Positions 1 through 64,000 of a DNA stretch of 64,000 nucleotides are shown piece by piece. Within the stretch, counting starts at the first letter, position 1. Each line of letters begins with the position of its first letter. Where the stretch lies: NCBI GenBank assembly GCA_963969365.1, contig OZ017758.1, positions 806,001-870,000 on the forward strand. The letters are read 5' to 3'. A program made the position numbers and the translations under genes. The notes beneath the pieces are model-generated. The model was not told where the DNA came from. It was given only the letters and a program-made list of their open reading frames with translations, and did not search any database. The DNA is from Asterochloris sp. CNOR1. Its lineage: Eukaryota; Chlorophyta; Trebouxiophyceae; Trebouxiales; Trebouxiaceae.

Positions 1-662
1 GCTTCATTCAGCAGCAGCAGCTGCAAAGCCTGGGGTCTGGGTGATCAGAGCAGCCTCATGCCCCACATAGGCCTGCGCACTGCTGGGCCTCTCCTTAACA
101 GCAAAGTGGTGACTGCCACTGAGCTGGGTGTCCAGCAGGAACCCCTCGCGCCTCTAGTCACCCAGGCCCCAGGCCCTGCAGCTGCTGCTGCTGAGTGAAG
201 CCACCACAGATGGGTACTTTCATGCCAGAGTGACCACAGGCCACCACTGAAGCCAGAGCTGTCTCTGCTGCTGACACCAGCAGGAGCTAACTGCTGACCC
301 ATTGTGTCCAGCATGAATTGTCAAGGCACCAGTCGCAGGATGCCCCCAGGCATTGAAGCTGCTGCTAGATCCAGCCCTCAAGCTCAGCAAGTCCACCCCG
401 AGAAGGGCCCAAGGCCACCCAGCCACCAGAGCCCAAGCCCGCCGCTAACAGACAAAAGCAATCCTATTGCGGACCCACCGCTGAGCAAGGCATCCCGCAG
501 GAAACCCTCACGGCTCCAACTGCATCAAGTCCCGGGCATTGCAGTCCCTGCTACTTGATACAAGCCCCACCCAGCTTCTGTATCTCAGAGAGCCAGGGGC
601 CACCAACTTGCAGGAGCTCATCCCATCCATGGACAGTAGGAGGCACCCCAACGCCAACCTAC
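1..662. repeat. ValRS intron with decayed copies of the exon 5 donor region
   Basis: The end of ValRS exon 5 (about 663-745) recurs in degraded form at about 485-535 and 128-200, and in part at 327-385. The copy at 128-200 aligns over the QQQ-LRRLGA and [12 protein letters not shown] stretch but has lost the frame. A further copy at 1-60 lies in opposite orientation to 150-200, so 1-200 is an imperfect inverted repeat. All copies lie downstream of the true donor in the direction of transcription. Confidence 0.7.
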
Positions 663-1926
663 CACTAAGCTGCGCGTCCAGTGTGAACCCCTCGCGGCTC
701 CAGTCGCAGGAGGCCCCCAGGCGCCGCAGCTGCTGCTGGATGAACCCGCCATACTGCTCCCGCCACTTCCACACCTGCTCAGTGAAGGCCTCCCGCCCCA
801 TGCCCAGGCGGGACTTGCCCTCAGCGGCCAGCATCTTCTCGACCACCATCTGCAGCAGCAAAGACCAGCTCAAATGGTGTTAGGGCAGACACAAAGATGC
901 CCTTGCACACCCTGTCAGCCCTGCTGCAGGGATGGACATGGAGAGGGAGGGTTGGATGGCCTCATCAGGTGCCAACTGTCAAGGGACTGAGTGCAAGGCC
1001 AACCCCCCTGCCTGAGCGGTGGAGCAGGGCATTCAGGCGTCACAAGCCAGCGCTGGCACACCTTCCTCACCTGGGTGGCGATCCCGGCATGGTCGGTGCC
1101 AGGCAGCCACAGAGTGGGCCGCCCCCTCATGCGGGCTGTGCGGGCCATGATATCCTGCAGGGCAGCAGGGAGAAGGGCCGTCATCACTTTCATGGCAAGA
1201 CGCACTGATAGTGGGAGTCTGCCAAAGGACCGCTGAGCTGCAGGGTCACCATCGCAAAGCACCCAAGAGACAAGCCTGCTACGGCCAGTGCAGGAAGCGG
1301 GCCGGCCCAGGACCATGATTTGCTGCTGCAGAATGCATTGTGCACTTCTGTTACCTGGAGGGTGACAAACATCGCGTGACCCATGTGCAGTCGGCCAGTC
1401 ACGTTAGGTGGTGGCATTGACATGGTGAACGGCTCGCCGGTTGCGTCCTCTGAAGGGGCGAAAAAGCCTTGCTGCTCCCACCTGCCAGCAGTGCACGCCG
1501 TCAGCAGGTGGCTGCAAGCTGTTGCGGCAGACGATCCACAGTGTCTCACCAAGCATACAGTCGCTGTTCTGTGCTGGCTGCATCAAAGTTTTTGGGCAGG
1601 TCTGGCCTCTGAGGCGCCGGCTGCTGGGGCTGGGCTGCTTCTGTAAGTCATGGAGTTCTCAGGACAACTGGATGCTGCAACAATGCAGGACAATGGTACA
1701 GCAGAGCCCTGCAACCACCTTGCTCAACAGCAGTGCTTGCTGCTCTGGGAATGGTGCCGCTGTACATGCCATGCCTTGCTGCCACACATGGTCTGGCTCT
1801 CCATAGCCTAGGTCGTAGAGCGGCCCGCTGGAGGGAGAACTTGGAGCAACTGAGGCGCTGCAAAGCATTGGCAGTGAATGAGGCTGGACTCCCCTCGGCT
1901 GTCGATCTCACAGGGAAACTTCTCAT
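1..1926 (-). CDS. Valyl-tRNA synthetase, organelle-targeted, 5' part only
   Basis: Class Ia aminoacyl-tRNA synthetase that charges tRNA-Val. Predicted exons on the minus strand are 1926-1719, 1640-1550, 1481-1355, 1154-1071 and 849-663; the rest lies beyond the left edge. Exon 1 starts at ATG 1926 and gives about 70 residues rich in Arg, Ser and Ala with few acids, which looks like a mitochondrial or plastid presequence. Exons 2-3 give the ValRS N-terminus ([29 protein letters not shown]) and the HIGH-type signature [15 protein letters not shown]. Exon 4 gives [19 protein letters not shown], diagnostic of ValRS. Exon 5 gives the connecting segment ending [12 protein letters not shown]. Phases agree at each junction. 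The KMSKS motif and anticodon domain are not in the window. Positions 1-662 are intronic and hold decayed copies of the exon 5 end. Family assignment is very secure; organelle targeting is inferred. Confidence 0.93.
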
Positions 1927-2080
1927 GCCACACAGAAATCTTCCCAGCCTGAGCTGCCCCTGTCTTAGTACGGGGGGCAGGGGCCTCATGGAAGGTCAAA
2001 GTATGAAGTCAAAAGTATGACTACATCAAGGCCAGCATCAATCTCACTCCGCTCAAGTGCGGTTAGAGTTGTTGAGCACA
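1927..2080. other. Divergent intergenic region ValRS / DUF2045 gene
   Basis: About 154 bp separate the two predicted start codons (ATG at 1926 minus, ATG at 2081 plus). It presumably holds both promoters. No TATA box or other named element is recognised. Confidence 0.4.
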
Positions 2081-7449: not shown

Positions 7450-8307
7450 CGGCGGGCCAGGGGGTCATGTACGCTTACGACAGAGGTGTATCTGCCTGAC
7501 AGCTGCCTGCAGCAGGCACTACCAGCCCTCAATCTTGCATCATCATGCATCATGACAGGTGCAATGCATGTCCAAGATTCAAGTTTTGAGATTGATGCTG
7601 AGCCAATGCCAGGCTGCAGACCTGGCTCTGTGGCTGCCCTCGTGCTGCTGGCACGGCGCTTTGAAACGTTGCGTACGTGAGGGGGGTTTGCCACCAGGCC
7701 GAGCACAGTCACACCAACAGAACAGCGCTCACCCGCCAGCTGTTGCACAAAGCCCATCCTAGCCTGCCGTGACAGAGGATGCCTGCCCCTTTGTGGGCGA
7801 GTGCAGAAGCGTGTCTGCCTTGAGGTCCTACGACTAAGCTTGCGGTATCTGACGTCTACAGAGTGTGTCAGCTTGACTTGCTCTGGACCGGCCCATTCTG
7901 CCGGAGCATTTTGCTTTAATCAGTCAACACTGAAAACAAGGAAAGTGGAATAGGAGGCTTTGAGCGTGCCCATCTGCGGAGCAGAGGCTTGAGCTTATTG
8001 CTGTACGGAGCTCGTCGCCATCTTGGCAATGTTGAGAGGCTGGCGGTTGGGATTATGATGGTCGTACAAGGTAACACGGCTGCATGTGAAGCTGGGCGGG
8101 ACATGCTCACGCACCGTTCACTGTGAGTCCATCTCAGGGCAGGGTGACCCACATGGCCTGCATGAGGGCCTTATGACGGCACTTCTTGCCACAGCCTAAC
8201 TTCAGATTCAGGGACCTAGATGAAGCTGACAAGAGCTTGACTGACACTGCACTAACTGTCACTGACATCTGTCAGCCACAGGTTTTTTGGGGCGTAGGAG
8301 TGTGTGG
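7450..8307. other. Intergenic region between cyclin start and IFT70 stop
   Basis: About 860 bp. It should hold the cyclin promoter and the IFT70 3' UTR. A short open frame at 7440-7757 (minus) overlaps the cyclin start but resembles no known protein. No named regulatory element, RNA gene or repeat was recognised. Confidence 0.45.
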
Positions 8308-11300
8308 TCATTGATGCAAGAGCTCCAGGAAGGCTTTTGTCAGGAGCCTTGCCTCTGCCGCCACTGTGGCCCCTGACTCAGCGGGCACCCTGCTCTGGAA
8401 GGTTGCAGGGATGGCCTTGCCCCATCGCTCAGCCTCCGCCAGGAAGTGCATGATATCTGCCAGTACAGGATCCTGCGTGCACCCACATGTGCACCAGGTT
8501 TCGCTACGTTGCACGAGCACCTGTGCGGCCTTGGCACAGATCGCCTTGACATCCACAAAGGCACTGCCTAAGGGAGCCAGCCAACTGGTAGGATCTACAA
8601 CTGGAGGGCCTCATGGCAGGCAGCGATATAGCCCTCAGCAAGAGTCTGGCTATCTTGAACAACAGCTGCTGAGCACTGGTTACTGCAGCAGACCAGCACC
8701 ACCACCGCAGCCGTTTCAGTTGCACTTTATAGCAGCATGACCACATCCACACACCAGCAGGGCAACCATGCGCTAGGCTTGGCCTCTCAGATACACCGTC
8801 TCGGCACCCTGCCGTGCCCTGCCCCAGCAGCAGCCAGGGCAGGTCACTCACCGGCAAGGCTATCATGTGCTTGGTGAGGCCCTCCACCAGGGCCAGGAAG
8901 CAGCGCTTGACATAGAACCAGGTGTCCGTCTCCAGTTTCTGTGCCAGGGGCTCCATGCTCTTCATGACACGCACAATGCCAAAAGGGAAGTTGCCCTTGG
9001 CACAGTACAGGGTGCCAATAACCAGATTGATGATGCACAGGTGCACCGCATGCTTGCTGGGGTCCTGCAGTCAACAGGGGGTGTCTTCAAGGTAAGGTCG
9101 GCAGTAGGCAAGTACGTATGAGTTGAGCGCATGTCTGACAGTGATGAGCTCATCAAGCTGGCTGCCATCGCTGCAGTGGCTGTCTAGTGCTCCGTAGCTG
9201 TCCAAGCAGCTACTTCTGCAGAGTGCAGCCGCCAGCCACCCGAGCGTCACAGGCTGTTTGCGGTGTGCTCCTGCTGATACCCTGAAATTTTGCATTTTTC
9301 ATGCAAGGGGCCTGAAATGGCCCAGTGACTGCCCCAGGCTGTCGCTGCCATCACAGCACCAGATCTCACAAATGTGGCGCTCCTCTTGCAGACTGCATGC
9401 ACCGCTTCCAGCTGTCGCCCTGCAGGCACGCCCACAGCCTGCTGCAGGCCGCATGCTGGCCCAGCCATGCCTGATCTTTGGACAGGTTGCCAGCCTTGCT
9501 GAGCCTCCAGCCTGCGCTGTTCATAGAACACTGGCCTTGCAGCAGACCCAACAATATCCTGCCTACATGCCCAGCTGCACGTCTGCATGAGCTGAGGCTG
9601 CCACCACATCACTCTGACAGCGCACTGCCAGCTGCCTCACACTTCCACCACCAAACAATCCACGCACTCTCTGGGCCTGCAGCTCCTCCTCCTGCTCCAC
9701 CTTGCGCATGAGGGCCTCAGCCTCCTCATTCTGGCTGGTCATGATGTAGCTGACACACAGGTTGGCCAGGACGATGGCCGTCACAGACAGGAGGTCGTCA
9801 ATGTGCGCCCTCACAATGGGCTCATAGAAATGAATCACCTCCTTGAACTTCTGGTCTGCAGGACAGCACCAGAATGCAAGGGCTTGTGCATCGCAGGTAT
9901 GCTCTGTGTGCAAGAGCAGAGGTGGATATGCACTGTGCCAGGGCGGAGGCTGTGCTGCCAGAGAGGACTAGGTGATCCCGAGGAGCTCGGCCTTCAAGCA
10001 GCCAGCAGCAACATTGGATGCAGAGTGAGTCGATGTCAGGCCGCCAAAGTACACGCTGCCGTGGCAGCCCACTGAGGGCAAATCAGCAGCAGGTTGCTGC
10101 TGTGCTGGCGGAAGCCCCCACTTGGGAGCAGGGGTCTGCCAGTACGCAGGAAGGCAGCGCAGGTGCCCGCATGCACTGGGCACCTTGCATGAAGAGGGTG
10201 TGGGCCAGGTTAAGGCGCCAGGTCTCGTGCTCGCTGCAGAATTCGGCGCTCTGCTGGAAGGCCTGCTGCACGCGGCTGTACTGCTGGCGATCCCAGTAGA
10301 TGTGAGCTTGCAACATGAGCACTACAGGGCGCAGGCACAAATGTCGTCATGAAATTATGCACCATAACACTTGCATGGCCTGGCACACTGAGGGGCATCT
10401 GTGCTGCAATGCTGTGCTGCTGGGATGCTGTGCTGGCACGATTGGTGTGGGGCTGGCATGGCAACAGAAAATACAGGCCAGCCGTTGGGATCTCAGAGCT
10501 GATGCCAACCTACCACATCCGTCTATGCAAGCAGCCGCTCATCTCATCGCTGCGATGCTGCTGACCTGCCTGACATGTCAGGGAGCTACCTGTGCGCACC
10601 CTCCAATTGAAGAAGCTGGCAGATCCTTGCGTGGTCACTCCCCGTCTGCATTCCCCAGAGATGCTGCCGCTCCATGTAGATTCTCCCTAGATTCACCAGC
10701 CATCTGATGCCATGGTGCATCGACACCCTGATGGCAGGATGCACTCGAGAGCCGCTGGCCAGGTCACTACACAGTCACTAAGTGACCCCAAGTACACTTC
10801 AGACCCCTTCTGGGCACTTTGCGAATTCATGAAATTGACTAATTTCTCTGGGCCCCATGTGGGGATGCTGCGCGCAGAGCTTGGGATGTCTGCTCTGCTT
10901 ACAAATGAACGTTGCCTGCTGAGCCCACCAGAGACACCACCATGCCAGCCGTTCGGTCATTTGCCAGGGGATGTCTAACACTGGAGGTCCCCAGCATCTG
11001 TCACCCTTTCAGCCTTCCCCATTAGCTCCCAGCACCACATTGCAGTCAGCCCACCTGAGATGCAGCCATCCAGTGCCGCCTCACATGCCGAGCTGGCTGC
11101 CGCCCACCCATGGTGAGCATGCCCATTGGCAGAGCGGGTCGACAGTGTTTGCCACCTTGCTGGGTCTGGTCAGACCCACCTGGGATGCAGCCCTCCAGTG
11201 CCTGAGCCTGACAGACAGGGCTGTATGTGTGCCCCAGCAGACCTCAAATCACAACAGCAGCCCCACAGAAGGTCCCACGCTCAGCCCACCTGGAATGTAC

Positions 11301-15552: not shown

Positions 15553-18500
15553 ATGCCAATCCGGGAGTGGCTTGGCATCCACCACCATGGGGCCCATGTG
15601 GGCAGGCATAGGCACCGCATTGAGCAGCCGCCTGGCGGCGAGCCCTCTGCGGAGCAACAGGTCCAACGGTTCACCCAGCAGCAGGACAGCCAAGACCCGC
15701 AGCAGGCACAGCAGCAGCAGCAGGCTCAGGCTGAATACGAGCGCCTGAACGAGGAGCATGACTTGGAGGTGGCTCTGGCCCTCAGCCAATCAGACTCGGA
15801 TGCCCGCAGAGTACACTGGTCTGAGGAGCATGAGCTGGATGCTGCCAAGCGCCAGTCCCTAGTGCTGGCCAGCAGCATGGGCCAGACAGAGGCGCTCTCA
15901 TACAAGCTGTGGGACAGTGACAGGTGAACCCTTCCCTGAGCTGCTGGGGACCCTCATCGACCTGGAAGGAGCACTGCATGCCTGACTGACAACGGCATGC
16001 GCATGCATACTGCTGGGCACACTGAGGGATGTTTGAGGTGCTCTTGCACCATATGAGGGGGTCGTGTTTTGTGGCGGTCTGAGCATGCTTGCCAGCGTAC
16101 GCCGATAGGGCATGCCATACTACTGCCCCGACTGCTAGTGCATGCAGTGGCTGGGGCCAGCCTGTTTCAGCGCTTTAATGCTGCTGGCAACAGCACGTAC
16201 CCACATGGTGGTATGCGTAGTCAGGCACCTGCCATGCTTGTGTCACTGCACCAGACTCACTGAGGAAGGCTTTGCATCTAGCCTTGACCACGTCACTGCG
16301 GGGCAGTGAGGGACTGGGTGACCCTGGGCTGGCGCAGCTTGTTGAATTCAGAGTATGCTGCTGGCTTAAGCCCAGCAGGCCCTGCTGTTAGTGGCTGCCC
16401 TTTCTGACTGCTTGGTCCGCCCGCTTCTGCCTTGCAACCGTGTCTGCCAGGCCACTGCTAGATACAACAAGAGTGGGGAGTCCCCATGCCCTTGCCTGGG
16501 TCAAGGAACGCCTCATGCGGTGCTGGGGGCAGCATATCTCATGTGGGGTGCCCCCTGGCAGGCAGCCTGGACAAAGCAGGGCATCAGCCTTCACAGGGCA
16601 GTACAACCCAACATCTTGCAGATTTGACTGGTGGATGCTTGCTGTCCTGCAGCCTGGACTACCAAGACGTGGTCACAGACGGCTTCTATGACCTGCACGG
16701 GGATTTCTCCCCCGAGCTGGAGAGGGATGTATTCCCCTCCCTGGCTGCGCTGCGGGCCCTGAAGCTCAATCCAGGGGACAAGCGTGAGGTGAGCAGGGCT
16801 AGGTCGATAACATCTGATACCCTGCCAGTTGCCAGCATAAGGAACCTGCAGACGAATGCTGGCCAGGCAGAGCAGAGGCCTCCTTGCGTTAGATGTCGTG
16901 TGTAAAGTGCTGCAAGCCCTGAACCCCAGGCGTCCTTACTGCATGACTCATGCTTGTATATTTGTTGTGCATGCTGCACCTCAGCAGCACTATCTGTCGC
17001 CAGGCTCGTGCTCCAGGTGAGTGCAGATAACATGGGCACCGTCAGGGCTCCAGCAATGTCCAAGACCATCGAGCTGTGCGTAGGTCAATTGATGGACATG
17101 AGCTGGACTGCACCCTTGACCAGACTGTTGCACATGCATTAGAAGGTTTGTGGACCGCAAGCAGGACTGTGCCCTCACCCGGGCTCCTGTGCTGCATTCC
17201 ACCAGTCGTGATGGATAGCAAGCAGGTTGACAGCCTCACCCAGGCTCCTCTGCTGCATGTCATCAGGGGAAAGACCACACACAGGAGCGTGGCCTCACCT
17301 AGGCTGTTGCGTTGTTGTGGACAGGGTTGCAACCTCGATCAAGTATGGTGTGCTGCGCGCAGGTGGTCGTGGTGGACCATGAGAAGGACTGTGGCATGGT
17401 GGAGCTAGAGGAGACCGCTGCAGAGGCTATCTCAGCAGCTGTGTCCAGTGGCAGGGCAGAGACTATCAAGGCAAGTCTGCCTGAGTGTCAGCCTGCAATC
17501 ACTGATGGTCGTGCTGGCCTTCACTGCCCCTCACTCCTCTCGGGCCTCAGATGGAAGGCAGCCTGCAAGGCACATGGAGGTGCAGTCTAGCATCATTGAC
17601 AGGCTGAGCATATAGGTAGGTCTGCGAACCCGCAAGAGCCTAGAATACACGCAGCCTCCATGCTGACCCAAGGCCAAGCAGCAGGCGCAGGCACTTAGGA
17701 TGCATTCAAGTCTCGCTGTGGCTGAAGGCCAAGCAGCAGAGGCAGGCCATCTCAGGCCCTCACGCACTCCTTTTGGACTGCAGGCCCTCGCATTGGTTGT
17801 GTCCAATCACATGGGTGGCCCAGCCACCAGTGCCTTGCCTGACCGCTGGGCAGCAGCCAGCCAGCAGCTGAAGGAGCAGGCTGGGGGCTGCGTCATTCAC
17901 CTGGGCAGCCTGCGGGCAGGACTCAGCCGTCACCGCGCTCTGCTCTTTAAGTCGTTGGCAGACGCCTGCCAGATTCCCTGCCGAATGCTGCGCGGCAGGT
18001 TCTATACAGGTGTGGATCTGTCTGCAGCAGCTATGTTACCCAGCGTCACGGTGTGCTGCATGATCTGCTGTCAAGTGGGGTCACAGCTGGGAGGGTGGCC
18101 AGATGACTCCCAGCAGCTGAGGGCTGTGCTGCGGTATCAGGTACATCTAGCAGAGGCAAGCTATGCTGCTGCTTGGGATTCAGGGTTCTCAGTGGCTGCC
18201 AGATCCCTTGCTGCATGCTGCACAGCAGGGCTACACAGGTGTGGAATGCCATCTGCGGCGGCTATGGGTTCCTTTAGCCAGCATCATGGTGTGCTGCTCT
18301 CCCCAGTGATGCCAGCCATGAGGAAGAGGGTGGCATCACAAAGTGTCCTTGTTGCACCATATGCTGCCATGTTTGGCAGGCTGCTTGCAGTGCAATGAAA
18401 GTGTAGGTGGCAGGCTGTGCATAGGCGCACAACATGTCATCCGCCAGCCTTCAACATGGTGAAGCTGCTTCCTCTGGGCTCGTCTTCGTAAGAATAGTGT

Positions 18501-30877: not shown

Positions 30878-36153
<5,276 letters not shown>

Positions 36154-46618: not shown

Positions 46619-47253
46619 CTGACGCTCCCTATATCACTGCATGGCTGGTGAAAATGAATGCATGCAATTGTAGCTGCTTCCAGGTGCCAAGATGAACCAC
46701 TAGAACTTGTAGCTCGAAGCTGTTCAACCTGAGTACATTGGGTCAATCATTCGCATACGTTGACTGCTCAGAAAGAGCGCTGAGATGATGGCTGACACAA
46801 GTGCGAGATGCCAGGGACCTTGATGAACGATCCTGATACCAGAAGCTGGCTTGACAAGGTGCACATGAGCCCATGGCGTGTAACCCTCATGTCAGACTTA
46901 AGATGCTCACAATGCACAACATCCAGCACGCAGAAGCTCATGAATCATTGATGGAGCCATGCTCATGCAGTTGCTGGACTCATCCATTATAGGAGCCCTG
47001 AGCGTGTTCCTGCGGCTGCTGCTGCTGCCCCTCCAGCTCCTGTCCAGGATTGTGGAGAACTTGCGCAACCCAGCGTGATCAGCAGGCAGCACACAGGGCC
47101 TGCCACGGCCGTATATTGCCAGCACGCCTTGTGTCGCAGTCCTCAATCTTGGATCACGTTTACATCATCGTGCCTCACAGGCATGAGACATGCTGCGTGC
47201 TGAGACACTAGCCTGAGGCGGGAGAGCTGCTGCGGGCTGCACCCTGCAGCAGC
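46619..47253. other. Tandem intergenic region SYLF / RCE1
   Basis: 635 bp between genes on the same strand. It holds the SYLF 3' UTR and RCE1 promoter. No conserved open frame or element was recognised. Confidence 0.4.
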
Positions 47254-49381
47254 ATGCACCCCCTGCTCAGCTGCCTGGGGCTGGCAGTTGCCTATGTGGC
47301 GCCTTTCTACCTGAGGCCCAAGCGCAGCCGCAATGTGCGCGAGACGGTGGTCTTCCGCATGACCTGCACCTGCGTGACGAGCAGTGTGGCCTGGGTGCCC
47401 CTGTGGCTGGAGCTGGCCAAGTCGGTGAGTCACATGACCTGCTCCGCATTTGAACTAGCCTGCTCACATGGTGTGCAGTGGTCTGAGCTCATTGTAGCAG
47501 CACTGTGAGCACCTGTTGTGACCAGCCGCAGGGCTTGTGTCCCCCTATGGCTGAAGCTCTCCCTGAGTTCAGAGCAACACCGTCGTGGCGGTGCATTCCC
47601 AACCAAGACAATGCGTGGCAGTGCATTGGGCCTGTGGCGCAGTCCTGCCTTGCGTCGGTCAACCTTTGCAGCATGTCGTCACCAGCTGGGCAACAGGCAT
47701 GCAGGTGCAGCAGGGCATGTTTTTGGAGGCCCTGCAGGGGGGTGGCAGCGAGTCCAAGACGCTGTCATGTCCTGCGCACTGGATGGTCCCCTCTGCCTTG
47801 TGACAGCAGCAGACCGCACATTTTGGGTGTTGAAGGGTGCGCCCTGAGCCGGCACCAAGATCCCTGCTGCCCATGCTACAGGCCATGCTATTGTGCCGCT
47901 CTGCAGCCTGCCCTTGTGCCAATAAATGCACCCTGGGTGCCAGAAGGCCTTGATGCAGGAGCTGCTGCTGAGCCTGACCAATATGTGCCTGAGCTCCCTT
48001 CTCACAGGCAGCCAGGGCGTCGCTCCCTTTGCTGCAGGGGCATGCCACCCGCGAGACGCTGCTGCTGCTGCTGGGCCTGCGCTGGCGGAGCCTGCCCTCC
48101 GCCGTGATGCGACCCCTGGCCCTGACAGCAGTGCTTTTCACGGGGCCCATAGCCACAGAGGCGCTCAACTGGTGGGACGGGGAGCCGCTCCCCCACCGGC
48201 AGCCCCTGCTGACCCGCCTGGGCCTCAGGAACTTGGTGGTGGCCCCAGCCACTGAGGAATTCACCTTCAGGGCCTGCATGGCGCCGCTGCTGCTGCTGCA
48301 TGTGAGCCCAATGACCCGCAGATTGCGCTGTGAATGCTGGGCCCGCATGACGCCCCTGTCGCTGCTGCAGCTCGTGGGCTCATGTGCCTGCTGTTTGACT
48401 TCCACGGCCTTGCTGCCTGCCACAGCAACACATGGTCTGGGGCCTGGCCTGCGCCTGGGTCATGCATGGCAGTCAACTCACCTACTTGTGCCCTCATCAG
48501 CAGAGACACTGCATAACCTCTGCATGCACCTGGCCTTGCCCGGGCACCAAGTGGGCTGCACACGTACATAGTTGCAGCACTGCTGAGTGACCCCCATCCT
48601 CCTTCCCAACCCCCCTCCCCCACCCCCCACCCCAGGGGTCGCTTGGCATGCCTAGACACAGTTTGACAGTTCTGCCTCAATCGCCTGCAGGGGGCGGGCC
48701 TCAGGAAAACTATCCTGGTGACCCCCATCATGTTTGGCGTGGCTCACCTGCACCACCTGTATGAGCTCGTCCGCTTCCAGGGAGCTAGCCTGCCTGGCGC
48801 TGCCCTGATGGTGAGGCAGCCCTGCACATCCTGTGTGTCTGCTGCTGCAAATAGGATGAGGCATCCCTGTGCCAGCTGGTGTGTCTGCTGCAGCACTTGC
48901 TGTGCCCACAGGGCCACCACAGCATAGTTGGGCTGCGGCGTCCTGGCACGTCAGCCTGCCCTCACAAGCAAATTCGCCGCCCACCTGTGCTTGGAGGGTC
49001 CAGTACTAGATGCTTTGGACATGCACTTCTCTGCAGCAGCGCAACTGTGCCGCTTTGCAAGCACTGGCTGTCTGCCTGCAGGTGTCCTTTCAGTTCTTGT
49101 TCACAGGCCCAGCCTTCGGCACCTATGCCACGTTTGTCTTCCTGCGCACTGGCCACCTAGCGGCGGCCATTGCTGTCCACTCTTTCTGCAACTGGATGGG
49201 ATTTCCGCCTATTGCAGATGTCCTCTCTCACCCCCAAAGCAGAAAACTGCTTGCCTTCTACATGCTTGGCATATGCGGATTTGCCGCCCTTGTACGCCCC
49301 ATCACTGACCCAGCCTTGTACAATAACACTCAATATGATCAGACTGTTAAGGCTGTTGTGGCACAGCGAGGCATGCATTGA
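47254..49381 (+). CDS. RCE1: CAAX prenyl protease 2 (RCE1), CPBP family
   Basis: ER membrane glutamate protease that removes the -AAX tripeptide from prenylated proteins such as Ras-like GTPases. Four exons, phase 0 at the joins: 47254-47424, 48037-48301, 48691-48810 and 49082-49381. Start MHPLLSCLGLAVAYVAPFYL includes the first membrane segment. Exon 2 holds further hydrophobic helices and the catalytic motif ATEEFTFRACMAPLL (EExxxR). Exon 3 has FGVAHLHHLYELVRF (second motif, metal-independent catalytic His). Exon 4 has HLAAAIAVHSFCNWMGFP (HxxxN motif) and stop TGA 49379-49381. All CPBP key residues are present and length is about 285 residues, in the usual range. Intron 1 contains a faint copy of the exon 1 end at about 47530-47565. 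Confidence 0.95.
48598..48640 (+). repeat. C-rich tract in RCE1 intron 2
   Basis: A polypyrimidine run dominated by C (CCCCCCTCCCCCACCCCCCA core), about 90 bp before the 3' splice site. It could extend the polypyrimidine signal or form a G-quadruplex or i-motif on the DNA. Confidence 0.6.
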
Positions 49382-49442: not shown

Positions 49443-52400
49443 TCAACCTTTGCTTTTGGACTTGGTCTCGATGAAGTCTGACGAAAGGCCGTATGTCGCC
49501 TGTAAAAATGCTGGGATCTCCTGTAGGGGTGACAAAATGTTCATTGCTGGCAGTCAGTGCCAGTCCGCAGTGGGGCTATCTGCCAAGGCATTTGAGGACG
49601 CACCTTTAGGAGGTTGCCCTGCAGAGCAATCTCCTTGCCAGTTTCCGTCTTGCCAGGCAGGCGCTGGACACTGCTCGAGGTCTGGAATTTCTTCTGGAGC
49701 TCAACTGCAGAGACCGAGACAACACCGTCGCTGGCACCCTTGCCTTTGCCAGCTGCCTCAGCAGGGCAGGGGTGCATAAACTAGAAAGGGCATGGAAGGG
49801 CCACTGACTTTACAGGCCTCACCTCCTAAAGCATCTGGATTAAAGCCGAAGCTCTCAACATGAGTGACCCTGGTGAGATGTTTTCTACCTCCTTGCCTGT
49901 CTTCCAGCTGAACAAAGACATGCTTTACTGTGCCCTTCTTCACCACCTCAACGGGACCCTGCAGCAGCAGGCATGAGGATGTAACAGCTTGTCAGAAAGC
50001 TGGCTGCTGCCTAAGGGAATTGGACAACGGGTTTGTCCTTTGAGATAACCCAGCCCACCTGCTCTGACACGCGAGACACCTTGTGGAACAGCTGCAGCTT
50101 CCCCAGCAGCCGCTGCAGCACCTCCTCAAAGCGCTCCTCTTGGCCCAGCGGGGGGCGCTCCTTCTTGCCATACAGCCCAGAGATCAGCAGATCATCCAGC
50201 TTGATGCTGGCTCCAGCCTGCAGGGGACAAAATTAACATATCAATCAGACCTGCCTGCTTCCTGCAGGCTGGCTGTCTGCAGCTCCACTGCAACGTTCTG
50301 TAAGCTCTGGCGAAGGACATCTGACTCCAAGCTAGATGCTGACTGTTGCCTACATGCCCACATGCTGGTGGTTTCCCACGCACACATGGGTCACACACTG
50401 ACATGCAGCCATGTGGGCACTTTTGTGCAATGATGGGTCTTCAGGGGTGGGCTCAAACGAGACCCGTCTGCAGGGTGCCGCCTGCCAGTCAGCGCCATGC
50501 CCTGCCTGCTCGCCTGCAGGCCTTGCTAGCACACAGCAGTGTGCAGCGTTCAGGGTCACGCCCAGCCTGATCATCTGCAGAGCAGTTGCTCTGCGCTGCG
50601 ATTGTGGCCTGCCTGCACAAGGCATCCAAGCTCCTAAAGAGGCAAGTTAGCATCAAGCACAGGCTACTCCCCTGCAAGCCATGCTGATTTGCACATCAGG
50701 CAGACCTGCACAGCTCGCCAGCATCGTGTCTGCTCAGGCTCTCACCTGCAAGCCATGGTGCTCTGCATAGCACTGGAGGGCGTCGTGGACCTGTGCCTCT
50801 GTGTAAAGCTCGTCCTTCACACCGCTGACATCCCCCATCACAGGGCGCAGGCTGGTCGGCACGCGGTAGCAGTATACAACCGACACCTGGCCGACGGCTG
50901 GGGCACTCGTGCTGGCAGCATCACTGGAACGTGCAGCTGCGTCTGCCGGGGGTGCCTGCACACAGCAGGCTGCACCTGAGGAGCCAGACTTGGCTCAAGC
51001 ATGCAGTGGCCGCCCTGGCAACTTAGTCACTGGGGTGGCAAGCTGCATCTGTTCAATTGCAGTCACACTCAGCGGAAACATGCAGCAAGGGCGCTGGCAA
51101 CCGTGGACACTGCAACGACTGTTCACTGCAACGGTCCATGGTGGTGGCAGCCTGGCATGCCCTGTGCAGCGCGAGAAGCAACCTGAGCTTCATAGGGGGT
51201 GGTGAGTGGGGAGCCGCACCTGTGCTGATGTCTGCTCAGCCACCTCAAAGCCAGTGTACAGCTCGTGCTGCCGGTTGACAGAGGCCAGATGGTCCTGCTT
51301 ATGCACCAGCTTCTGTCCCAGCAGCCCCTGCAGATCACTGAACCAACGGGCTGGTGAGGCACACACAGCTCCACCCAAACCCTTCCTGACAGGCAGCATG
51401 CTATGACTCACAGCAACTGGTGAAGCTGCATTTACAGTGCACATGCCCCTTAGGCACTGCCCCAGCTTGGCGAGCCTGTGCTGTGCAGCAAGGTCACCAT
51501 GCTTGACTGGAAGACAGCAAGCTTCCTGATTGCAACCAACAACAGAACAAAATGTGCTGCAGCCCACCTTCTTCTCATACTTGCTCAGCAGCTTGCCCAG
51601 CTTCTTGTAGCTGGTTTTCTTGATGTCCAGCACAGCTTCTGCAGGCAGGCAGTCACTGGCACAGCTGCAAGCAGAGCAGGCAACAAAGCAGTCTTCGGCT
51701 GGTGTACCAGCATAATGGAGCCTGATCTATGCACAGCCTCATAACGCATTGGGCCTGACATGATAGGAGGCCACCCAAACACAGCCAACTGCATGCAGGA
51801 GAGCAGGACACCATGTTGACATTGCTGCACATCGTCATGATGCGGCTTTGAATTGCTGTGGGCCTGCGCCTCCAGAGCGACTGACCTGTGGGTTTGCAGG
51901 CCAGCATGCACCTGCTGTAGAAGTCGCTGGTCTGCATGGGCAGCTCTGAGTCTTGCACCCTGTGCAGGCCAGCCACCAGCAGCCACTCCACCAGCCCATC
52001 CGGATCCTGAGGGATGCTGGGACCTGCAGGCATGCCAGATTGAGCACAAGTCGGCCCAGCAATATACCAGTGGCACTGCAGGGAAGCTGGTAGCTGCAGC
52101 CCCAGCAGCAGGGGCTCACTAGACTACCCCACTACTCTGTATCGGTCAAAGAGCACCTCTGCATGGGGCAGGAAGCTGGCCAGCATCGCTGACCAAAACA
52201 CCAGCTCTAGCGCGTCTCTCAGCCATGGAAGATGGCCAAAGCCAAGGTGCTGTGCAAGGGAAGGCCACCCAGAGCAGCACCTTCGGCAGCATACCTGCAG
52301 CCTCTTGCGGCATGTCTCCTGCTTCCTGTGCCTCGGCATCAGCCTGGGAACCTTCAGCGGCCTCAGCCGCCTCCTCAGCATGACCATTGGCGCCTTCATG

Positions 52401-55808: not shown

Positions 55809-58294
55809 TCAGAAGAGCTCCAGCTTGCGCAGAACCTGAGAGATCGTGTCCCAGGAGTGACCCCTGCGTTCAAGCCAGGCCACCATTCTGCGCCTTCTGG
55901 TCTGGAGGGGCATGCCGCGCGTTACTTCTGTCTGCCGCCGTGTAGACTCCAGCAGGTCCAGATCCAGGCGGCCTGCACATGACAGCAGCAGCATAAGAAA
56001 TTTACGCAGTGGCTGGATCTCGAGCCATAAAAAGAAGCCTCAGCAATTCACCACAATTTGTAGGCGTGGAGTTTAAAGGCAAAGCCAAAAAGGGTGCGAT
56101 TGTGTGTGCTGAAAGCCAGAAAACTTCATGCACACCATTGCTCATGCTTAGCTGCTGACAGCTAATCTTACATTTCTATCAACCCACCATGAAGTGCTGA
56201 CAAGTCAGGAGCCTCTGCCTCCTGAAAGTCCACATTCAGACGCTCGCTGTGCTCCCCAAACACGCTCTCCAGCCCGGCCTCAATATGCTGCTTGGCCACG
56301 CCTCGCTTGACCAGCTCCATCCGGATTCTGGAAGGTGCCCAGCGGGACTGTCGCCATTTGGAGCGCGCAAATACCTCTGCAAAGTCTGCATCGCTCTGCA
56401 GCCCCTGCAGGAGGGCCAGCAGGTTGCCGAGGACACCTGGAAATTTTGCTTGAAATGGGCAGACACCTTTGCAATGTCGTACCGCTCTGCAGCCTCTGCT
56501 GTAGGGCCAGCAGGCTGTCAGGCAGATGCGACAGCCACTTGAGGTGCACAAACATGTCCCCATGTCAGCATCTATGCAGGCCCAGGATCAGCTGTGTCAG
56601 GCTAGCTGCATCTCCATCGAGTGCCAGCACTGCACCAGGGCAGCGGAACACAGTGTTGGGTGAGCATAAAGCGGGCGGCCTAGTCTGTAGTGCAGATGCA
56701 GTGCAGGTTAGCCTGTGCAAGTGTAGCAACCCCTTCCTGATGCTGCACTACAGCAATCGATGATGCCCACTGCCATTTATGCCAATCCAAACAATTCAGA
56801 TAATACTAAGCTTACAAGCTCTACCATGCTGTCTGGGAAGCCCACGATGGTGCTGGCCTACTGCTCCTACCTTACAAAACCCCCATGCCTCTCAGAAAGG
56901 TGATAGCTGACAGCTCGCGAGGCTCTCAGGGCCTGCTGTGCCACACAACGGTGTGTGCCTCCGTGCTCACACTGATGAATGAGAGACCTGACCTTGCTGC
57001 TCTCCAGCCCTGCCACAAGATCCGAACCACAAAGGGGTTCATTTGCCTGGGTTCAACTTCGGACCCCAATGTGGCTGCTCACCCCCTCAGCAAGGCAGTT
57101 GTGCAGCTTGCTAACCCGTTTACACGGCAGCAGTGAACACACTGCCCATCCTGCTGCTGCTGCTGCTCCCCAGCTCAATCAAGCACTGCCTGGGCACCAT
57201 GCTTTTCCTGGCTTGCAGCAAGGTCCCAAGACTCAAATAAGGCTTATTGCTGACCAGCAACAGCAGGCCACACAGAACAGTGATGCCCCTCCATGAGTGC
57301 AGGAGTGCACCTGACCCCCCAGTCCTGCTGCTCACCAGCTCTGCCAGTCGCTCCAAAGCCTGCTGCACTGCCTTGGCATCGTGGCCCTTCTCGTGCAGCT
57401 TGTGTTCCAGCTCCTGCCGGGAGTGCGGCCTCCGTGCCAGGTGCCCAGCTGCGGAGTTCTTGGCTCGCTCGAATTGCTTGTGGGAGGGCGAGCTGCAGGG
57501 AGGGACAGCACTGTCACCAGGGGCAGGGGCAAGGGAAGGTGGCAGGGGGCAGCAGCATGCTTGCCAGCTGCAGCACTGGGCTGCGGGTGCAAGAGTGGCA
57601 GCAGTCAAGGCAGATGCGTGACCTGATGCAACATCGGGCGTGCACATCCTGAATGCTTGCTGATCAGCTGTGCCAGCATACAGCACCAGCAGAGCAGTAT
57701 CATGCTGCATGCAGGACAGCTGCACCAGCAACTGTTTCTTTGGGGTGCGACAGTAGTCCGGTACTCACAAGGCCACGACAACTCACTCAAAATCCTCTCC
57801 CCTCTCGTCTTCCTTGGTGAACAGCATGCTTGGCCCCTCATCTGCCGATGACAACACGCTTTCCCTGCTGTGGGGAGTTCGTGCAAGAGGCCCCCCATGT
57901 CCAGAGTTCACTCGCCACCGTTTAGGTGTGCTGCTGTGCCAGGAGTGTGCGCGGTGCTGAGCGCGGCTGGGCAGAGAGATGCTGATGGCGCTGCTTCTGT
58001 TGTCGGCAAAGGAGGAGGTGTGATGCCGCAGTGTGTCAGCTGCTGGTGCAAATCCCTCAAGGGTGACTGTGCTGGGTACAGTGGCTGCAGACACACAGGG
58101 ACCTGCTGATACACGCCTGGGCTGGAGCCAGCTGCAAAGCAGGATGAGCAGGATGGACAACAGAAGCGCTGTATCTTACCCAGGTACAGATTCCTAAGGC
58201 GTTTTGCATTCCTGGCCATCTTGTTGGGAGTGAGCATGCTGGTGGCCTGTGCCACACTGACACTGGAGCAATTGGCGTGGAGCAGCATTAGCAT
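55809..58294 (-). CDS. RecX-like protein, probably organelle-targeted
   Basis: RecX proteins bind and restrain RecA recombinase in bacteria; plants carry organelle-targeted forms. The candidate start ATG 58294 (MLMLLHANCSSVSVAQAT) leads a basic, Ser/Arg-rich N-terminus (to about 57785) that could be a transit peptide. The RecX three-helix repeats are visible: RAKNSAAGHLARRPHSRQEL, EHKLHEKGHDAKAVQQALER near 57440-57340; EVFARSKWRQSRWAPSRIRM and ELVKRGVAKQHIEAGLESVF near 56380-56260; TRRRRMVAWLERRGHSWDTI and SQVLRKLELF ending at stop 55809. The order (SR-EL-KL-KG then RRG-W) is the family pattern. The joins within the N-terminal 120 residues are uncertain. Confidence 0.82.
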
Positions 58295-58428
58295 TCACTT
58301 CGTTACTGGCAGTGCTAAGGCAGGACTTGGAAGAAGCTGAGTACAAATATCAATATGGAAATATTGATTCATCACAGAGAGATCTTGACAGGTCGGCTTC
58401 AGCCTCTGGGTCTCTTGATGGCTGCATT
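58295..58428. promoter_or_regulatory. Divergent promoter region RecX-like / PhyH-family gene
   Basis: About 134 bp between predicted starts (ATG 58294 minus; first in-frame ATG 58429 plus). The plus frame stays open upstream to 58312 without an ATG, so this stretch is probably 5' UTR. No element recognised. Confidence 0.35.
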
Positions 58429-59960: not shown

Positions 59961-60385
59961 AGTGTTACTGACAGCATGACTCATCTGCTGGGCAGAACCA
60001 GTGCTTTGCTGCAGCACTTGGCTTCTGTTGTCTCAGTTGCCTTCTTGTGGGCAGCAACAAAGCCTCAGAACAGAGGTATCTGGCAATGCTCTCTTGTGAC
60101 CATGTGGTCGTCCATTCTCTGGCCTGCTGGCCATGCCACACATCGACTACCAGCTCATGCCAGGCAGCCACGGCTTGCAGGGACCGCATTCCCTGCCTGG
60201 CTGTGCATCACAGCTTAATGCAGCAAATGGGGCCTCCCTGGACTGTCTAGTGTCAGTTACGGCCTTGACTGTCTGTCAGGCAAAGCAACAAGCTAAGCTC
60301 TCACATACTCGCACATTGCAACCTCTCACATGCATTTTGCTAAGAGATGGACTGGCAAAAGGTGCCACCAGAGCAGACTGCTGTT
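59961..60385. other. Convergent intergenic region PhyH / EF-hand gene
   Basis: About 425 bp. A frame at 60133-60260 reads MPHIDYQLMPGSHGLQGPHS, which faintly recalls the GSH part of PhyH proteins, but it is too short to support. Otherwise 3' UTR sequence. Confidence 0.35.
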
Positions 60386-62437
60386 TCAATTGTCCTGGGT
60401 CCACCAGCTTGATGAGCGAGCCATGCGCCTCAGCATCTTGGCCTCAGCAGTGTGTGCCCTCACGGCTTCAGCTTCATATATTGCAATGAATTGGTCCAGT
60501 GTGATGAAGCCATCAATGTCCTGCATGCAGAAGAGCACATGTCACAGCTGCTCAGGTGTGCCTCCTGTGATTTTGAGAGCTTGCAGCAGCAGATGTGCCG
60601 CTCGCGTATTCACCATGCTCTCAAAGATAATCTGCACGGTGCGGGCTGACAGCTCGTCGCCCAGACTGCGCATAGCATCTGTAGGACAGCAGGTGTGCTT
60701 GGTTTGACCTGGCCAGGGGGCGTGAAGCATGTGGCTGCAGGCAGGTGCAAGCTGCTCTGCTCACCTCGGAACTCTGCAACATTGAGCTTTCCATCGCTGC
60801 AGTCATTAGAAGTGCTTGAGCGACACTCGAGTGCAGGTGCTTTGGAGCAGAAGCAGGCAACACGTTCAGCCAGGGAGGCCCTCACTTGTTGGTATCACAG
60901 CTGTAAAACAGTTCAACGAGGCGGCTCTTCCGAACATCTGCGTTGCCAGCAGCCTTCACCATTGCTGCAGCCTGCTTAACTTCAGCGTCTGCGGGCTCTG
61001 CAGTGTGCAGACACAATGTGAGTAAGGACTGAGGACCTCTTGAGTCACACAGCAGTCTCCAATGTGCTGTTGCCAAGACCACATGCAAGCCAGCAGCTCA
61101 AGTGACTGGCAATGCTGCAGTGCTGCCAGCTAGCATCTGCAGATCAATTTTGGAGAAAGCGTGCTGCAGCTGGCAGGAGCACTGGCAGGAGGATAAAAAC
61201 ATTGGGACTGTCTGCTGCCTCCTCAAAACTGCAGCCCAATCATCAACAGAGTTGCAGGAGAGGATGGCGCTTGCATCACAGCAGCAGCGACAGAAGAGCA
61301 TGATACAGCCCTGTCCCTCCTGAGAGTAGCGTAGTGGCAACGCACGCATCTCAAACATCTGAGGAATCTCTCACCCACACTGCAGCCTCAAGGCCCAGAG
61401 CAGGACAGCCCACTACCTGCCGCCCTACTAGCACTGCAGTCTGGACCTGTTGCGAGGCTGTTCCGCCTTCTGCAGCACTCACCATCTTTTGCATGCATCT
61501 CAAGCTCCTTTGCCAGGCGGCGCTTCTCTGCATGGCTGAGCGCTTGCAGCGTCTGCACAAATCTCTCCATGTGCGCCTCTCCAACACTCTGCCGCACAAA
61601 AGACTCGAAGTTCTCCAGCCTCTCGCACTGCTCGCCGGTGAGGGCATGAGAGTCTGCAAACTCCACCTCGCAGCCTGCCTCTGCATCAGCCTGCAGAGCA
61701 GATTAAGACTGGGTGAGGCCCCAGAGCGGTACATCTGAAGCTCAGATGAGGTGCTGGGAGTCAGCAGGTTGCCTCACAGCCTGTCTTTGCACCAACCTCC
61801 AGATCAGGCAGGCATCTCCTAAAGTGAACTGCAGTCCACCACGCTGCCTACATCTCTGCCTCAGCACACATGTGAAGCAGTGCATTCAACTTGTCTAGGA
61901 CCACTGGCAGCGACTCACCCTCTGTTTTCCAAGGTAGTGGTAGGCCTCCCAACACCCTTCTGAGTCTTGATCGCCAGGAATGGCTGAGCAGAAACCTGCA
62001 GGGCGATGAGAAACATGATCGCTCCCAGGCCTCAACAAGGAGACCCCTTTGCCACACCGGCCAGCTTCAGGCACGGCCCAATGTCTGTAGGTATGGCATG
62101 TGCTGGCAGGTACTCCAACCTGCAAGCTGATGCTCTGCAGTGTCAAGGATGCTGGGGGGCTTTGCATCCCTCTCCTCCTGGGTGGACTGCAGCCGTTTCG
62201 TGACGCGATACTGTGGTGCAGCAGAGTCCTCAGGGGTCTGCTCCTTGGTCTGTGGGGGTGCCTGTGAGCCTGCCTGTAAGGCAGAGTTGCCTCCATGTCA
62301 GCATGCCACATCAGCTCACACTGAAGGCAGGCTGTTGCGGACTGCAGACGCACCTTGGTGGGGCACAAACCTCTGACCCTCCGCGCCAAGGGTGAGGAGG
62401 AAGTTGGACAGGCAATGCCAGGTTTTTGCACAATCAT
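60386..62437 (-). CDS. EF-hand domain protein of unknown function
   Basis: Not assigned to a named family. Candidate start ATG 62437 (MIVQKPGIACPTSSSPLARR) with a basic N-terminus that could be an organelle presequence. Exon blocks on the minus strand: GSQAPPQTKEQTPEDSAAPQ and TKRLQSTQEERDAKPPS near 62270-62150; SEGCWEAYHYLGKQ near 61950; ADAEAGCEVEFADSHALTGE, ERLENFESFVRQSVGEAHME and QTLQALSHAEKRRLAKELEM at 61690-61490; VELFYSCDTN then CGATGG.. near 60900 and 60810, which when spliced form a canonical EF-hand loop DTNNDGKLNVAE; SARTVQIIFESMVNTRAAHL near 60620; DIDGFITLDQFIAIYEAE near 60510, a second EF-hand-like loop; stop 60386-60388. The last intron phase could not be reconciled, so the 3' end is provisional. 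Confidence 0.62.
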
Positions 62438-62685
62438 GCCTGTGATCACCAGCCCAAGGGTTACTGCACTTAGAGGCAGAGCTGACAGCGTTTGAGTGGT
62501 CTCGGGACGTTATCAGCAGCTCAAAGCTTATGAGTAGCTTAGGTCAATGTCAGCTCAGCACAGCAGATGTCTTCGTTGTGTCCTAGATCGCAGCAATCCT
62601 CCACCCGAGCCTTGATCGGTCTTTACAGGGCGCCTGCTTTCCCACGACAGGCAGGTCTTCTCAGCCCTGAACGGCCGCGGCTGAC
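62438..62685. promoter_or_regulatory. Divergent region EF-hand gene / MRE11
   Basis: About 248 bp between predicted starts. Probably contains both promoters. No element recognised. Confidence 0.35.
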
Positions 62686-64000
62686 ATGGACCAAGAGGCG
62701 TAAGTTATGGTGGCCAAGCAAGATCAGGCTGAGCGTGCAGGCTGCTTATCCATTCCTGTGCTACAGGCTGAACATCCTCAAGGTCCTGGTAGCCACTGAC
62801 AACCACCTGGTGAGGCTTCTCTCAACAGCCGTATCAAGATACAACATGGTGCAAGGCAGGAGCTCAGGGCCACATGATGTCCAAAAGCCCAGATCTTGGC
62901 TGGGCTCTGCAGGGCGTGTGGGAGAAGGATGAGATCAGGAAGGATGATGCCATGACCACCTTTGAGGAAATTCTGGGCATTGCCACCGACCGGGAGGTCG
63001 ACTTTGTGCTGCTGGGAGGTGGGCAGGTGCTTCGATACATCTGAGTAGATGAGGCCCCTTGTCAGCGGTTTGTTGGGTTGAGCAGGTCACAGCACTGTCT
63101 ATGCTGGGCAGTGCTGGATGACCTCCATCACGACATGATGAGGGGCTCACCTCATTGGGCCCACACCTGACAGCATTTGCATACAGCCTGTCTTGTCTGA
63201 CAGTGCCTCGATGCATTTTTCAGCTGCAGGCTGGCTGTCCATGGTCGGGGAGACGCACCACACATTGAAGCTGCCTGCATCCTTTGGATGTCAAAGCACC
63301 TCCTGCACCTAGAGTTCCTTGCAGGCTAGGGCCCTACTTTGAGCTGCATTTAGCTGATTTGGAGCTGCTTGCTGCCTCTCCTGTCTGTGCTGATAGAGGC
63401 CCACCCTCTTTGCAGCTGTGAGATACCTGCCAGTGCCCCCTGCTGCATGCTCCTGGTGCCAGCAGGAGAGAAAGTCAACACAGCAGAGCTGCCTGCAGCT
63501 GCGGCACTCATGGGGTGGTTCACTGCTGCACACCCCAGCACCTTGTTCCAGATTGCCAGCGCTCATCTGCAGCAGGTCTTCCTCCAGTTGGTGACAGCTG
63601 CCTACAGTCAACAAGCTCGGCAAGGCTTGACTGCAAAGCTCACTGCACAGCTTCGCTTTGTTGGCAGGAGACCTGTTTCATGACAACAACCCTTCCCGCA
63701 CAACTCTGGTCAAGGCCATGGACATCATCAAGCAGCACTCCCTCAGCGACAAGCCCATCACCTTCCAGATCCTCAGCAAACAGGACGACAACTTTGAGAA
63801 GAGGCAAGCAGGCAGGAGTCGGACAACCCTTTGAGGTGTTGTGCTGGCATTGGTTTGTGGGCAGCCGCTGGTCTTGGATGGCAAAGCAGCACAGCCAGAT
63901 GTGGGCCTGAGGCCAGCAGAGCCTGGCACATCCCCCAGGCTTACTTCTCCTGCCTCAAGCACTGCAGCAGCTGCCTTGCGTACAGACATGGTGCTGATTT
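62686..64000 (+). CDS. MRE11: MRE11 double-strand break repair nuclease, 5' part only
   Basis: Mn-dependent nuclease of the MRE11-RAD50-NBS1 complex that processes DNA double-strand breaks. Exons: 62686-62699 (14 nt, ATGGACCAAGAGGC), 62767-62809, 62913-63018 and 63668-63803, with matching phases; the rest lies beyond the right edge. Visible metal-site motifs are LKVLVATDNHL (motif I; the Asp and His ligands) and GGDLFHDN (motif II), split by an intron. EKDEIRKDDAMTTFEEILGI and SRTTLVKAMDIIKQHSLSDK match the family. Exon 4 ends at AAGAG before GCAAGC, a GC donor. Only about 100 residues are covered, so nuclease motifs III-V cannot be checked. Confidence 0.93.

What the first reader, a model, noticed from the sequence alone, without database searches (positions are those of the whole stretch)
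1..63900. Introns grow by absorbing tandem duplications of their own splice junctions
In at least seven genes (ValRS, IFT70, MAP3K, PsbP-like, RPT1, TRAPPC12, eIF2D; faintly RCE1) introns hold one to four decayed copies of an adjacent exon/intron junction. The polarity is consistent: donor-type copies lie downstream of the true donor and acceptor-type copies upstream of the true acceptor. That is the expected outcome of a tandem duplication spanning a junction when the outermost sites stay in use: protein sequence is unaffected, the intron lengthens, and the inner copy becomes neutral sequence. I do not know a published description of this as a genome-wide mode of intron growth in green algae. 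It could explain why introns here look like coding sequence (CTGCAG-rich, open frames in many phases).
Basis: partly seen in the sequence, partly recalled or inferred. Interest (0 to 1): 0.85.

Follow-up and report, generated by a model that had tools for sequence, protein, structure and literature searches.

The report
Introns lengthened by duplicated exon edges
In one stretch of a green alga's chromosome, roughly one in eight to one in five of the introns examined carries a worn copy of the neighbouring exon's edge, left by a small tandem duplication that made the intron longer without changing the protein; the ingredients are known, the frequency is the surprise.

Summary
The window lies in a 56.4 Mb genome; I read 280 kb of one contig and annotated it with a home-trained gene model. 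Among 338 strong predicted exons, the last 60 bases recur in the downstream intron 33 times (control 0.2), upstream 2 times (control 1.6). The first 60 bases recur upstream 33 times (control 1.8), downstream never (control 0.6). Mid-exon probes give 4 hits in 314 trials. Gaps with a copy have median 561 bp; subtracting the duplication step gives 359, like gaps without one (330). Copies are local and direct and decay like neutral DNA. Introns here did lengthen by tandem duplications spanning splice junctions.

Nothing shows that junctions are targeted: duplication occurs throughout noncoding DNA, and junction copies stand out because selection freezes the exon partner. The polarity follows from tandem geometry plus selection. 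PsbP-like was not confirmed. The copies do not explain CTGCAG-rich introns. Intron birth by duplication (Rogers/Hellsten) was tested and not supported. One puzzle remains: most copies look old (about 0.3-0.4 substitutions per site), suggesting a past wave. No RNA-seq or related genome was available.

The parts
659..849 (-). ValRS exon whose donor side is duplicated (donor just below 659)
   Evidence: PDB hit valyl-tRNA synthetase E=4.5e-19; predicted exon
478..576 (-). decayed copy 1 of the ValRS exon end and donor region
   Evidence: BLAST 116-438 vs 478-809 and 128-576 vs 304-758
304..400 (-). decayed copy 2 of the ValRS exon end (outer limit approximate)
   Evidence: BLAST; probe hit 306-347
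113..206 (-). decayed copy 3 of the ValRS exon end; part of it (67-151) was miscalled as an exon by my gene model
   Evidence: BLAST 113-206 vs 659-751, 78% identity
11290..11497 (-). IFT70 exon, donor CCAG|GTGGGC
   Evidence: gene identity from a neighbouring exon, PDB IFT70 E=4.4e-22
11169..11203 (-). decayed copy 1 of the IFT70 exon end and donor (CCCAG|GTGGG kept)
11055..11101 (-). decayed copy 2 of the IFT70 exon end and donor
   Evidence: score 25
17784..18009 (+). EDR1/CTR1-type MAP3K exon, donor ACAG|GTGTGG
   Evidence: Pfam PF14381 E=7.6e-23
18196..18297 (+). decayed copy of the MAP3K donor junction; similarity continues into the intron
   Evidence: BLAST 17966-18059 vs 18196-18297, 75%; score 24
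21101..21443 (+). predicted exon of the same MAP3K gene with an acceptor-side copy
21018..21047 (+). acceptor-side copy of the 21101-21443 exon (starts 30 bases into the exon)
   Evidence: score 24
32763..32969 (-). RPT1 exon, donor GGCAG|GTGGGA
   Evidence: PDB 26S regulatory subunit 7, E=2e-40
32529..32590 (-). decayed copy of the RPT1 donor junction
   Evidence: BLAST 78% over 63 columns; score 25
33015..33053 (-). marginal acceptor-side copy of the same RPT1 exon
   Evidence: score 16, at the threshold
32285..32325 (-). possible copy of the acceptor junction of the next RPT1 exon (31993-32144), seen by eye only, not in the counts
   Evidence: sequence
41356..41553 (-). TRAPPC12-like exon with copies on both sides
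41115..41156 (-). decayed donor-side copy of the 41356-41553 exon
   Evidence: score 17
41743..41770 (-). decayed acceptor-side copy of the 41356-41553 exon
   Evidence: score 22
44448..44558 (+). predicted exon of an unnamed gene, donor GAG|GTAAGT (below the strong-exon cut, not in the counts)
44615..44684 (+). decayed copy of that donor junction, GT lost
   Evidence: BLAST 71% over 70 columns
47250..47424 (+). RCE1-like exon
   Evidence: Pfam Rce1-like below cut-off on other exons of the gene
47509..47558 (+). decayed donor-side copy of the RCE1-like exon
   Evidence: score 24
48038..48301 (+). second RCE1-like exon with a donor-side copy
48339..48369 (+). decayed donor-side copy
   Evidence: score 21
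50746..50955 (-). eIF2D exon, donor GCAG|GTGAGA
   Evidence: eIF2D winged helix and Pre-PUA domains in neighbouring reading frames of the same strand
50672..50698 (-). decayed copy of the eIF2D donor junction, GT lost
   Evidence: score 17; sequence
56188..56404 (-). predicted exon with an acceptor-side copy, assigned by me to the RecX gene (same strand, next to it)
56450..56494 (-). decayed acceptor-side copy
   Evidence: score 22
57311..57492 (-). RecX gene exon with a donor-side copy
   Evidence: RecX_HTH1 E=6e-12
56995..57026 (-). decayed donor-side copy
   Evidence: score 18
61483..61690 (-). predicted exon of an unnamed gene with an acceptor-side copy
61747..61794 (-). decayed acceptor-side copy
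   Evidence: score 18
31677..31913 (-). intron-intron tandem pair in an RPT1 intron (31677-31717 and 31872-31913), no junction involved
   Evidence: 86% over 42 columns

Best explanation
Small tandem duplications (detected steps 27-626 bp, 140 of 198 under 200) arose along the genome without regard to genes. Those that disrupted an exon were removed by selection. Those lying in an intron, or spanning a donor or acceptor, survived: the cell kept using the outermost splice site, the mRNA stayed the same, the intron became longer by one unit, and the inner copy drifted as neutral sequence. Junction-spanning cases are the most visible because one partner, the exon, is held still by selection. Shown: local direct copies, polarity, length bookkeeping, neutral decay. 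Inferred: that the outer site has always been the one used, that the duplications arose by break or nick repair with fill-in and end joining, and that most events belong to a past wave.
For: Direct repeats with 34 bits or more at 100-400 bp: 60 (59 outside a tandem gene block), about 70-500 times the per-pair rate beyond 5 kb; inverted repeats at 60-600 bp: none. Probe test on 338 strong exons: 33 and 33 on the predicted side against 2 and 0 on the other, controls 0.2, 1.8, 1.6, 0.6; mid-exon 1 and 3 of 157 (controls 0.6 each). A second scoring scheme and a stricter exon cut agree. Length: 561 with copy, 359 after subtracting the lag, 330 without (p=0.36; 57 and 217 gaps); in the strictest set, gaps with no predicted exon inside, 478, 277 and 268 (21 and 138 gaps, p=0.52). 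Mismatch by codon position 0.187, 0.218, 0.243 in 51 copies, so no strong protein constraint. GT kept in 9 of 16 donor copies and AG in 10 of 15 acceptor copies that reach the junction, as expected from 78-80% identity. Intron-side similarity is as low as a simulation of old neutral copies predicts. In 6 of the 16 strongest direct pairs with lag under 450 (two of the six in ValRS) the alignment covers at least 0.9 of the lag, so the copies abut.
Against: Gene models are predictions, not RNA. Donor-side copies show almost no similarity on the intron side beyond the splice consensus (ungapped 0.274 against 0.259; 3 of 21 with anchored extension 10 or more); this fits old neutral copies but also exon-only copying. 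The third-position excess (0.041, bootstrap 0.007-0.074) is smaller than fully neutral synonymous change would give in the simulation (about 0.10-0.12). The scarcity of young copies does not fit a steady process. In 10 of the 16 strongest pairs the alignment does not span the lag. One contig only.
Confidence: 0.85

Rival explanations
1. Introns were born by tandem duplication of an exonic AGGT segment (Rogers/Hellsten): the start of the intron is a copy of the next exon's start and its end a copy of the previous exon's end.
For: Donors and acceptors here share a proto-splice core, CAG|G, and local duplication is common.
Against: In register, exon end against intron end 0.256 against shuffled 0.256, and intron start against exon start 0.263 against 0.257, in 229 introns. 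No copy abuts the far end of its gap: 0 of 66.
Confidence: 0.05
2. The copies are functional: alternative exons, decoy splice sites or recursive splice points kept by selection.
For: Some copies keep GT or AG, and the gene model calls a few as exons (RPT1 32548-32607, ValRS 67-151).
Against: Splice dinucleotides are kept no more than other bases; mismatches are nearly even over codon positions.
Confidence: 0.06
3. Duplication is targeted to splice junctions, for instance by transcription-linked nicks or R-loops.
For: Only 5 of 87 BLAST pairs were intron-intron, against 17 expected on random placement, and acceptor-intron pairs were 16 against 9; junction windows score above noncoding ones (55 of 1145 against 167 of 5782 at score 18 or more).
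Against: Opportunity and detection bias predict a ratio of about 1 to 5; observed 2.0. Donor and acceptor counts are equal; donor-intron BLAST pairs were at expectation, 10 against 9.
Confidence: 0.1
4. Copies are made in an error-prone step (or mutate fast at first), so they only look old.
For: Few near-identical pairs; third-position excess lower than a full clock predicts.
Against: In the exons of the five window genes confirmed by homology (ValRS, IFT70, MAP3K, RPT1, eIF2D) the third-position excess is large (positions 1 and 2: 25 of 150; position 3: 22 of 75; my sum), as a clock predicts; the substitution pattern is transition-biased without strong direction.
Confidence: 0.1

Closest known systems
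Junction-crossing tandem duplication in potato RdRp (Ma et al. 2016, PMC4974935; abstract, introduction and results sections read)
   Same: A tandem duplication crosses an intron-exon boundary and reuses its splice signals; the same paper also notes an 83 bp duplication inside an intron that did not change gene structure.
   Different: There the outcome was a new intron in one gene; here existing introns became longer, in many genes, with no change to the exons.
Novel intron positions by sliding or tandem duplication in Drosophila (Lehmann et al. 2010, PMC2891723; abstract and one results section read)
   Same: Regional tandem duplications near splice sites alter gene structure.
   Different: They concern new intron positions from exonic proto-splice sites; the authors say the surrounding sequence no longer supports the duplications.
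[quoted passage not shown] not held; known from its citation in PMC4974935 and from recall)
   Same: Tandem duplications inside genes are common.
   Different: As cited, it concerns whole duplicated segments and intron creation, not decayed junction copies in introns.
Small tandem duplications as the commonest short insertions, made by break repair (Schimmel et al. 2021, PMC8355091, abstract and introduction read; PMC2374710, passages seen; Messer and Arndt 2007, seen as a citation)
   Same: Likely mutational source: direct, local copies.
   Different: The human ones described there are under 100 bp; detected steps here are often 100-350 bp.

Membership tests
Small tandem duplications | local copies in direct, not inverted, orientation | tested here: met
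   24 inverted self-matches closer than 60 bp are hairpin-like and of another kind
Small tandem duplications | copies abut (homology as long as the spacing) | tested here: inconclusive
   6 of the 16 strongest pairs
Small tandem duplications | breakpoint microhomology or fill-in signature | not testable with these tools
   breakpoints decayed
Rogers/Hellsten intron gain by AGGT duplication | intron ends match the opposite exon edges in register | tested here: not met
   229 introns, no excess; 0 of 66 copies abut the far end
Introners | similar introns scattered over many genes | tested here: not met
   within the 280 kb only: beyond 5 kb, 34-bit matches are equally rare direct and inverted (107 and 107)
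Tandem exon duplication / mutually exclusive exons | copy keeps coding constraint and splice sites | tested here: not met
   codon-position mismatches nearly even; splice sites decay
Tandem exon duplication / mutually exclusive exons | alternative splicing of the copy | not testable with these tools
   no RNA data

The most novel reading that the evidence does not exclude
An ancestor of this alga went through a wave of tandem duplications of about 60-350 bp that built a large share of today's intron sequence, so that its introns are in good part worn-out exon edges; because each exon is a frozen reference, the genome holds a datable record of a mutational process that has since slowed.
Probability: 0.3. 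Interest if true: 0.7.

Novelty: new variant of a known kind. Interest (0 to 1): 0.5.

Why it matters
It gives a concrete, testable source for intron lengthening that needs no transposons, and a method: exon edges frozen by selection reveal old tandem duplications that are hard to see in plain noncoding DNA. Decayed junction copies also mislead gene finders (mine called RPT1 32548-32607 and ValRS 67-151 as exons), so annotations of such genomes need care. The apparent lack of young copies poses a clear question about how the rate of small duplications changes over time.

Tried and rejected
Intron birth in register and copies abutting the far splice site: none. Functional copies: splice dinucleotides and codon positions show near-neutral decay. 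Directional hypermutation of copies: no strong direction in the spectrum. Lag in multiples of three (inner copy used in frame): counted by eye, 14 and 6 of 33 donor lags leave remainder 0, 1 and 2, no excess of 0. Junction targeting: not needed. CTGCAG richness explained by acceptor copies: no sense-strand excess. Organism identity: not settled (one search listed no paper with this assembly size; one search failed). The circular-shift comparison left out hits in a tandem gene block (280 kb positions 178000-181000) and is affected by the gene model calling decayed copies exons. One search skipped low-complexity windows (8501 kept). The strong-exon set is 338 of 780 predicted exons; weaker and shorter ones were dropped, and one of the 338 (67-151) is a decayed copy.
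Full report
What was read. The window is G000:C13:806001-870000 of a 56.4 Mb, 21-contig genome. There is no annotation, RNA or related genome here. I wrote a two-strand hidden Markov gene model, seeded with conserved peptides and self-trained. It converged on a donor CAG|GTGAGC and an acceptor CTGCAG|G. Known genes are recognised where it places exons: RPT1, EDR1-type kinase, eIF2D and RecX, ValRS, IFT70, RCE1-like weakly. It called 780 exons; I used the 338 with score above 10 and length of at least 60 bp. 'Intron' below means the gap from a strong exon to the next strong exon, up to 1000 bp; some gaps hold weaker predicted exons.

Local duplications are real and abundant. BLAST of the 280 kb against itself finds, at 34 bits or more, 60 direct pairs spaced 100-400 bp (59 outside a tandem gene block), a per-pair rate of 0.2-1.4 per million against 0.003 beyond 5 kb, and no inverted pairs at 60-600 bp; 24 inverted self-matches closer than 60 bp are hairpin-like. 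An annotation-free window scan with a 20 kb-away control agrees (score 18 or more: exon 47 of 1574, junction 55 of 1145, noncoding 167 of 5782; controls 1, 0 and 10). Its 198 merged pairs have steps of 27-626 bp, 140 of them under 200.

I searched the last 60 bases (donor side), first 60 (acceptor side) and middle 60 of each strong exon in the flanking introns, with introns of other exons as control. At Smith-Waterman score 16 or more: donor side in the downstream intron 33 of 338 (control 0.2), in the upstream intron 2 of 338 (1.6); acceptor side upstream 33 of 338 (1.8), downstream 0 of 338 (0.6); middle 1 upstream and 3 downstream of 157 (0.6 each). A stricter scoring scheme gives the same picture, also for the 131 exons scoring above 20. 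In the window alone: 9, 1, 6 and 0 of 69, middle 0 and 1 of 32. So copies come from exon edges, on the predicted side.

Introns did lengthen. Of 274 gaps between adjacent strong exons of one strand, 57 (21%) hold at least one copy. Their median length is 561 bp, 359 bp after subtracting the duplication step, against 330 bp for the 217 without (p = 8e-11 before and 0.36 after subtraction). In the strictest set, gaps with no predicted exon inside, 21 of 159 (13%) hold a copy, with medians 478, 277 and 268 (p = 6e-8 and 0.52); two intermediate sets agree. The steps sum to 9-10% of the gap length in each set (0.087-0.100). Longer introns offer more room to find copies, but the control rate is too low for that to matter.

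The copies decay much as neutral DNA. Mismatches by codon position are 0.187, 0.218 and 0.243 in 51 copies; fourfold sites 0.271, zerofold 0.209. GT is kept in 9 of 16 and AG in 10 of 15 copies that reach the junction, close to what their identity predicts. Beyond the junction, donor copies show little similarity (0.274 against 0.259, 21 events) and acceptor copies some (0.366 against 0.267, 20 events). A simulation in which the exon is frozen and both intron sides drift gives values in this range at 0.3-0.5 substitutions per site. In ValRS, exon against one copy reaches 78%, while two longer alignments that are largely copy against copy stand at 60 and 64%, as independent decay would give.

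No special attraction to junctions. Random placement of duplications on this gene structure leaves 42-56% in noncoding DNA only and 21-26% spanning one junction with at least 25 exon bases. In simulation, junction pairs are detected 2.5 times (0.3 substitutions) to 8 times (0.4) as often as noncoding pairs, 1.3 times at 0.2. At 0.3-0.4 that predicts a ratio of roughly 1 to 5; observed 113 to 57, or 2.0, among the 198 pairs. If the copies were younger, the observed ratio would exceed the prediction. The BLAST set, where only 5 of 87 pairs were intron-intron against 17 expected, is open to the same bias and is therefore not evidence of targeting. The polarity, too, is what tandem geometry and selection must give.

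Intron birth is a different matter and is not supported: no similarity in register in 229 introns, and 0 of 66 copies abut the far end of the gap.

Age puzzle. Only 3 of 91 edge hits with score 14 or more reach 30 (about 12 of the 91 are expected by chance). By simulation a steady process would give about 40% (my arithmetic). A very young copy could be called a strong exon and drop out of this test, so I also looked without annotation: only 13 places in the 280 kb show 90% identity over 40 bp at lags 30-1000; by my reading 4 lie in a tandem gene block and 3 in coding repeats. Against this, 18 of the 198 merged pairs contain some stretch of at least 30 columns at 90% or more. In a steady process older copies cannot outnumber younger ones per unit time, whatever the removal rate, so either the rate was higher in the past, or copies arise or become diverged quickly, or the assembly lost near-identical repeats. 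The codon-position data do not decide: the overall third-position excess is 0.041 (0.007-0.074), lower than a full clock, while the exons of five homology-confirmed genes show a larger one.

Literature. Searches found tandem duplication as a source of new introns (PMC4974935, PMC2891723) and as the main source of short insertions (PMC2374710, PMC8355091), and in their listings no paper whose title or abstract start describes decayed junction copies as a common mode of intron growth. A review of intron evolution (PMC3488318) was seen in passages only. The library holds open-licence papers only, so this is not proof of absence. The break-repair origin is inference from PMC8355091.

Verdict. A real, strong and orderly pattern with an ordinary neutral explanation, at a high frequency and with an unexplained age profile, shown on one contig of one alga. 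Whether the frequency is unusual for algae could not be tested here.

Noticed in passing
280 kb stretch, C13:600001-880000: Most local duplications are 15-40% diverged; near-identical ones are rare, which a steady process does not predict.
   Followed up: partly
C13 about 778600-780800 (window -27400 to -25200): A block of direct repeats with steps near 294, 581 and 920 bp and 68-77% identity, possibly a repeated gene or protein segment; left out of some counts.
   Followed up: no
window 20612-20740: A 63 bp unit repeated twice at 96% inside a predicted MAP3K exon, in frame: a young tandem duplication apparently tolerated in coding sequence.
   Followed up: no
window 55884-58288: A gene with a RecX domain, best known from bacteria (recalled), in an algal nuclear contig.
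   Followed up: no
window 62767 to beyond 64000: Predicted exons resemble MRE11 (recalled; the one exon given to Pfam had no hit); the gene seems to run past the window end.
   Followed up: no
whole 280 kb: Acceptor consensus is CTGCAG|G; CTGCAG, a palindrome, is also frequent inside the gaps (486 in 141.6 kb).
   Followed up: partly
G000:C18:1403137-1403243: A 72% match to the RPT1 exon on another contig, probably another proteasomal ATPase gene.
   Followed up: no
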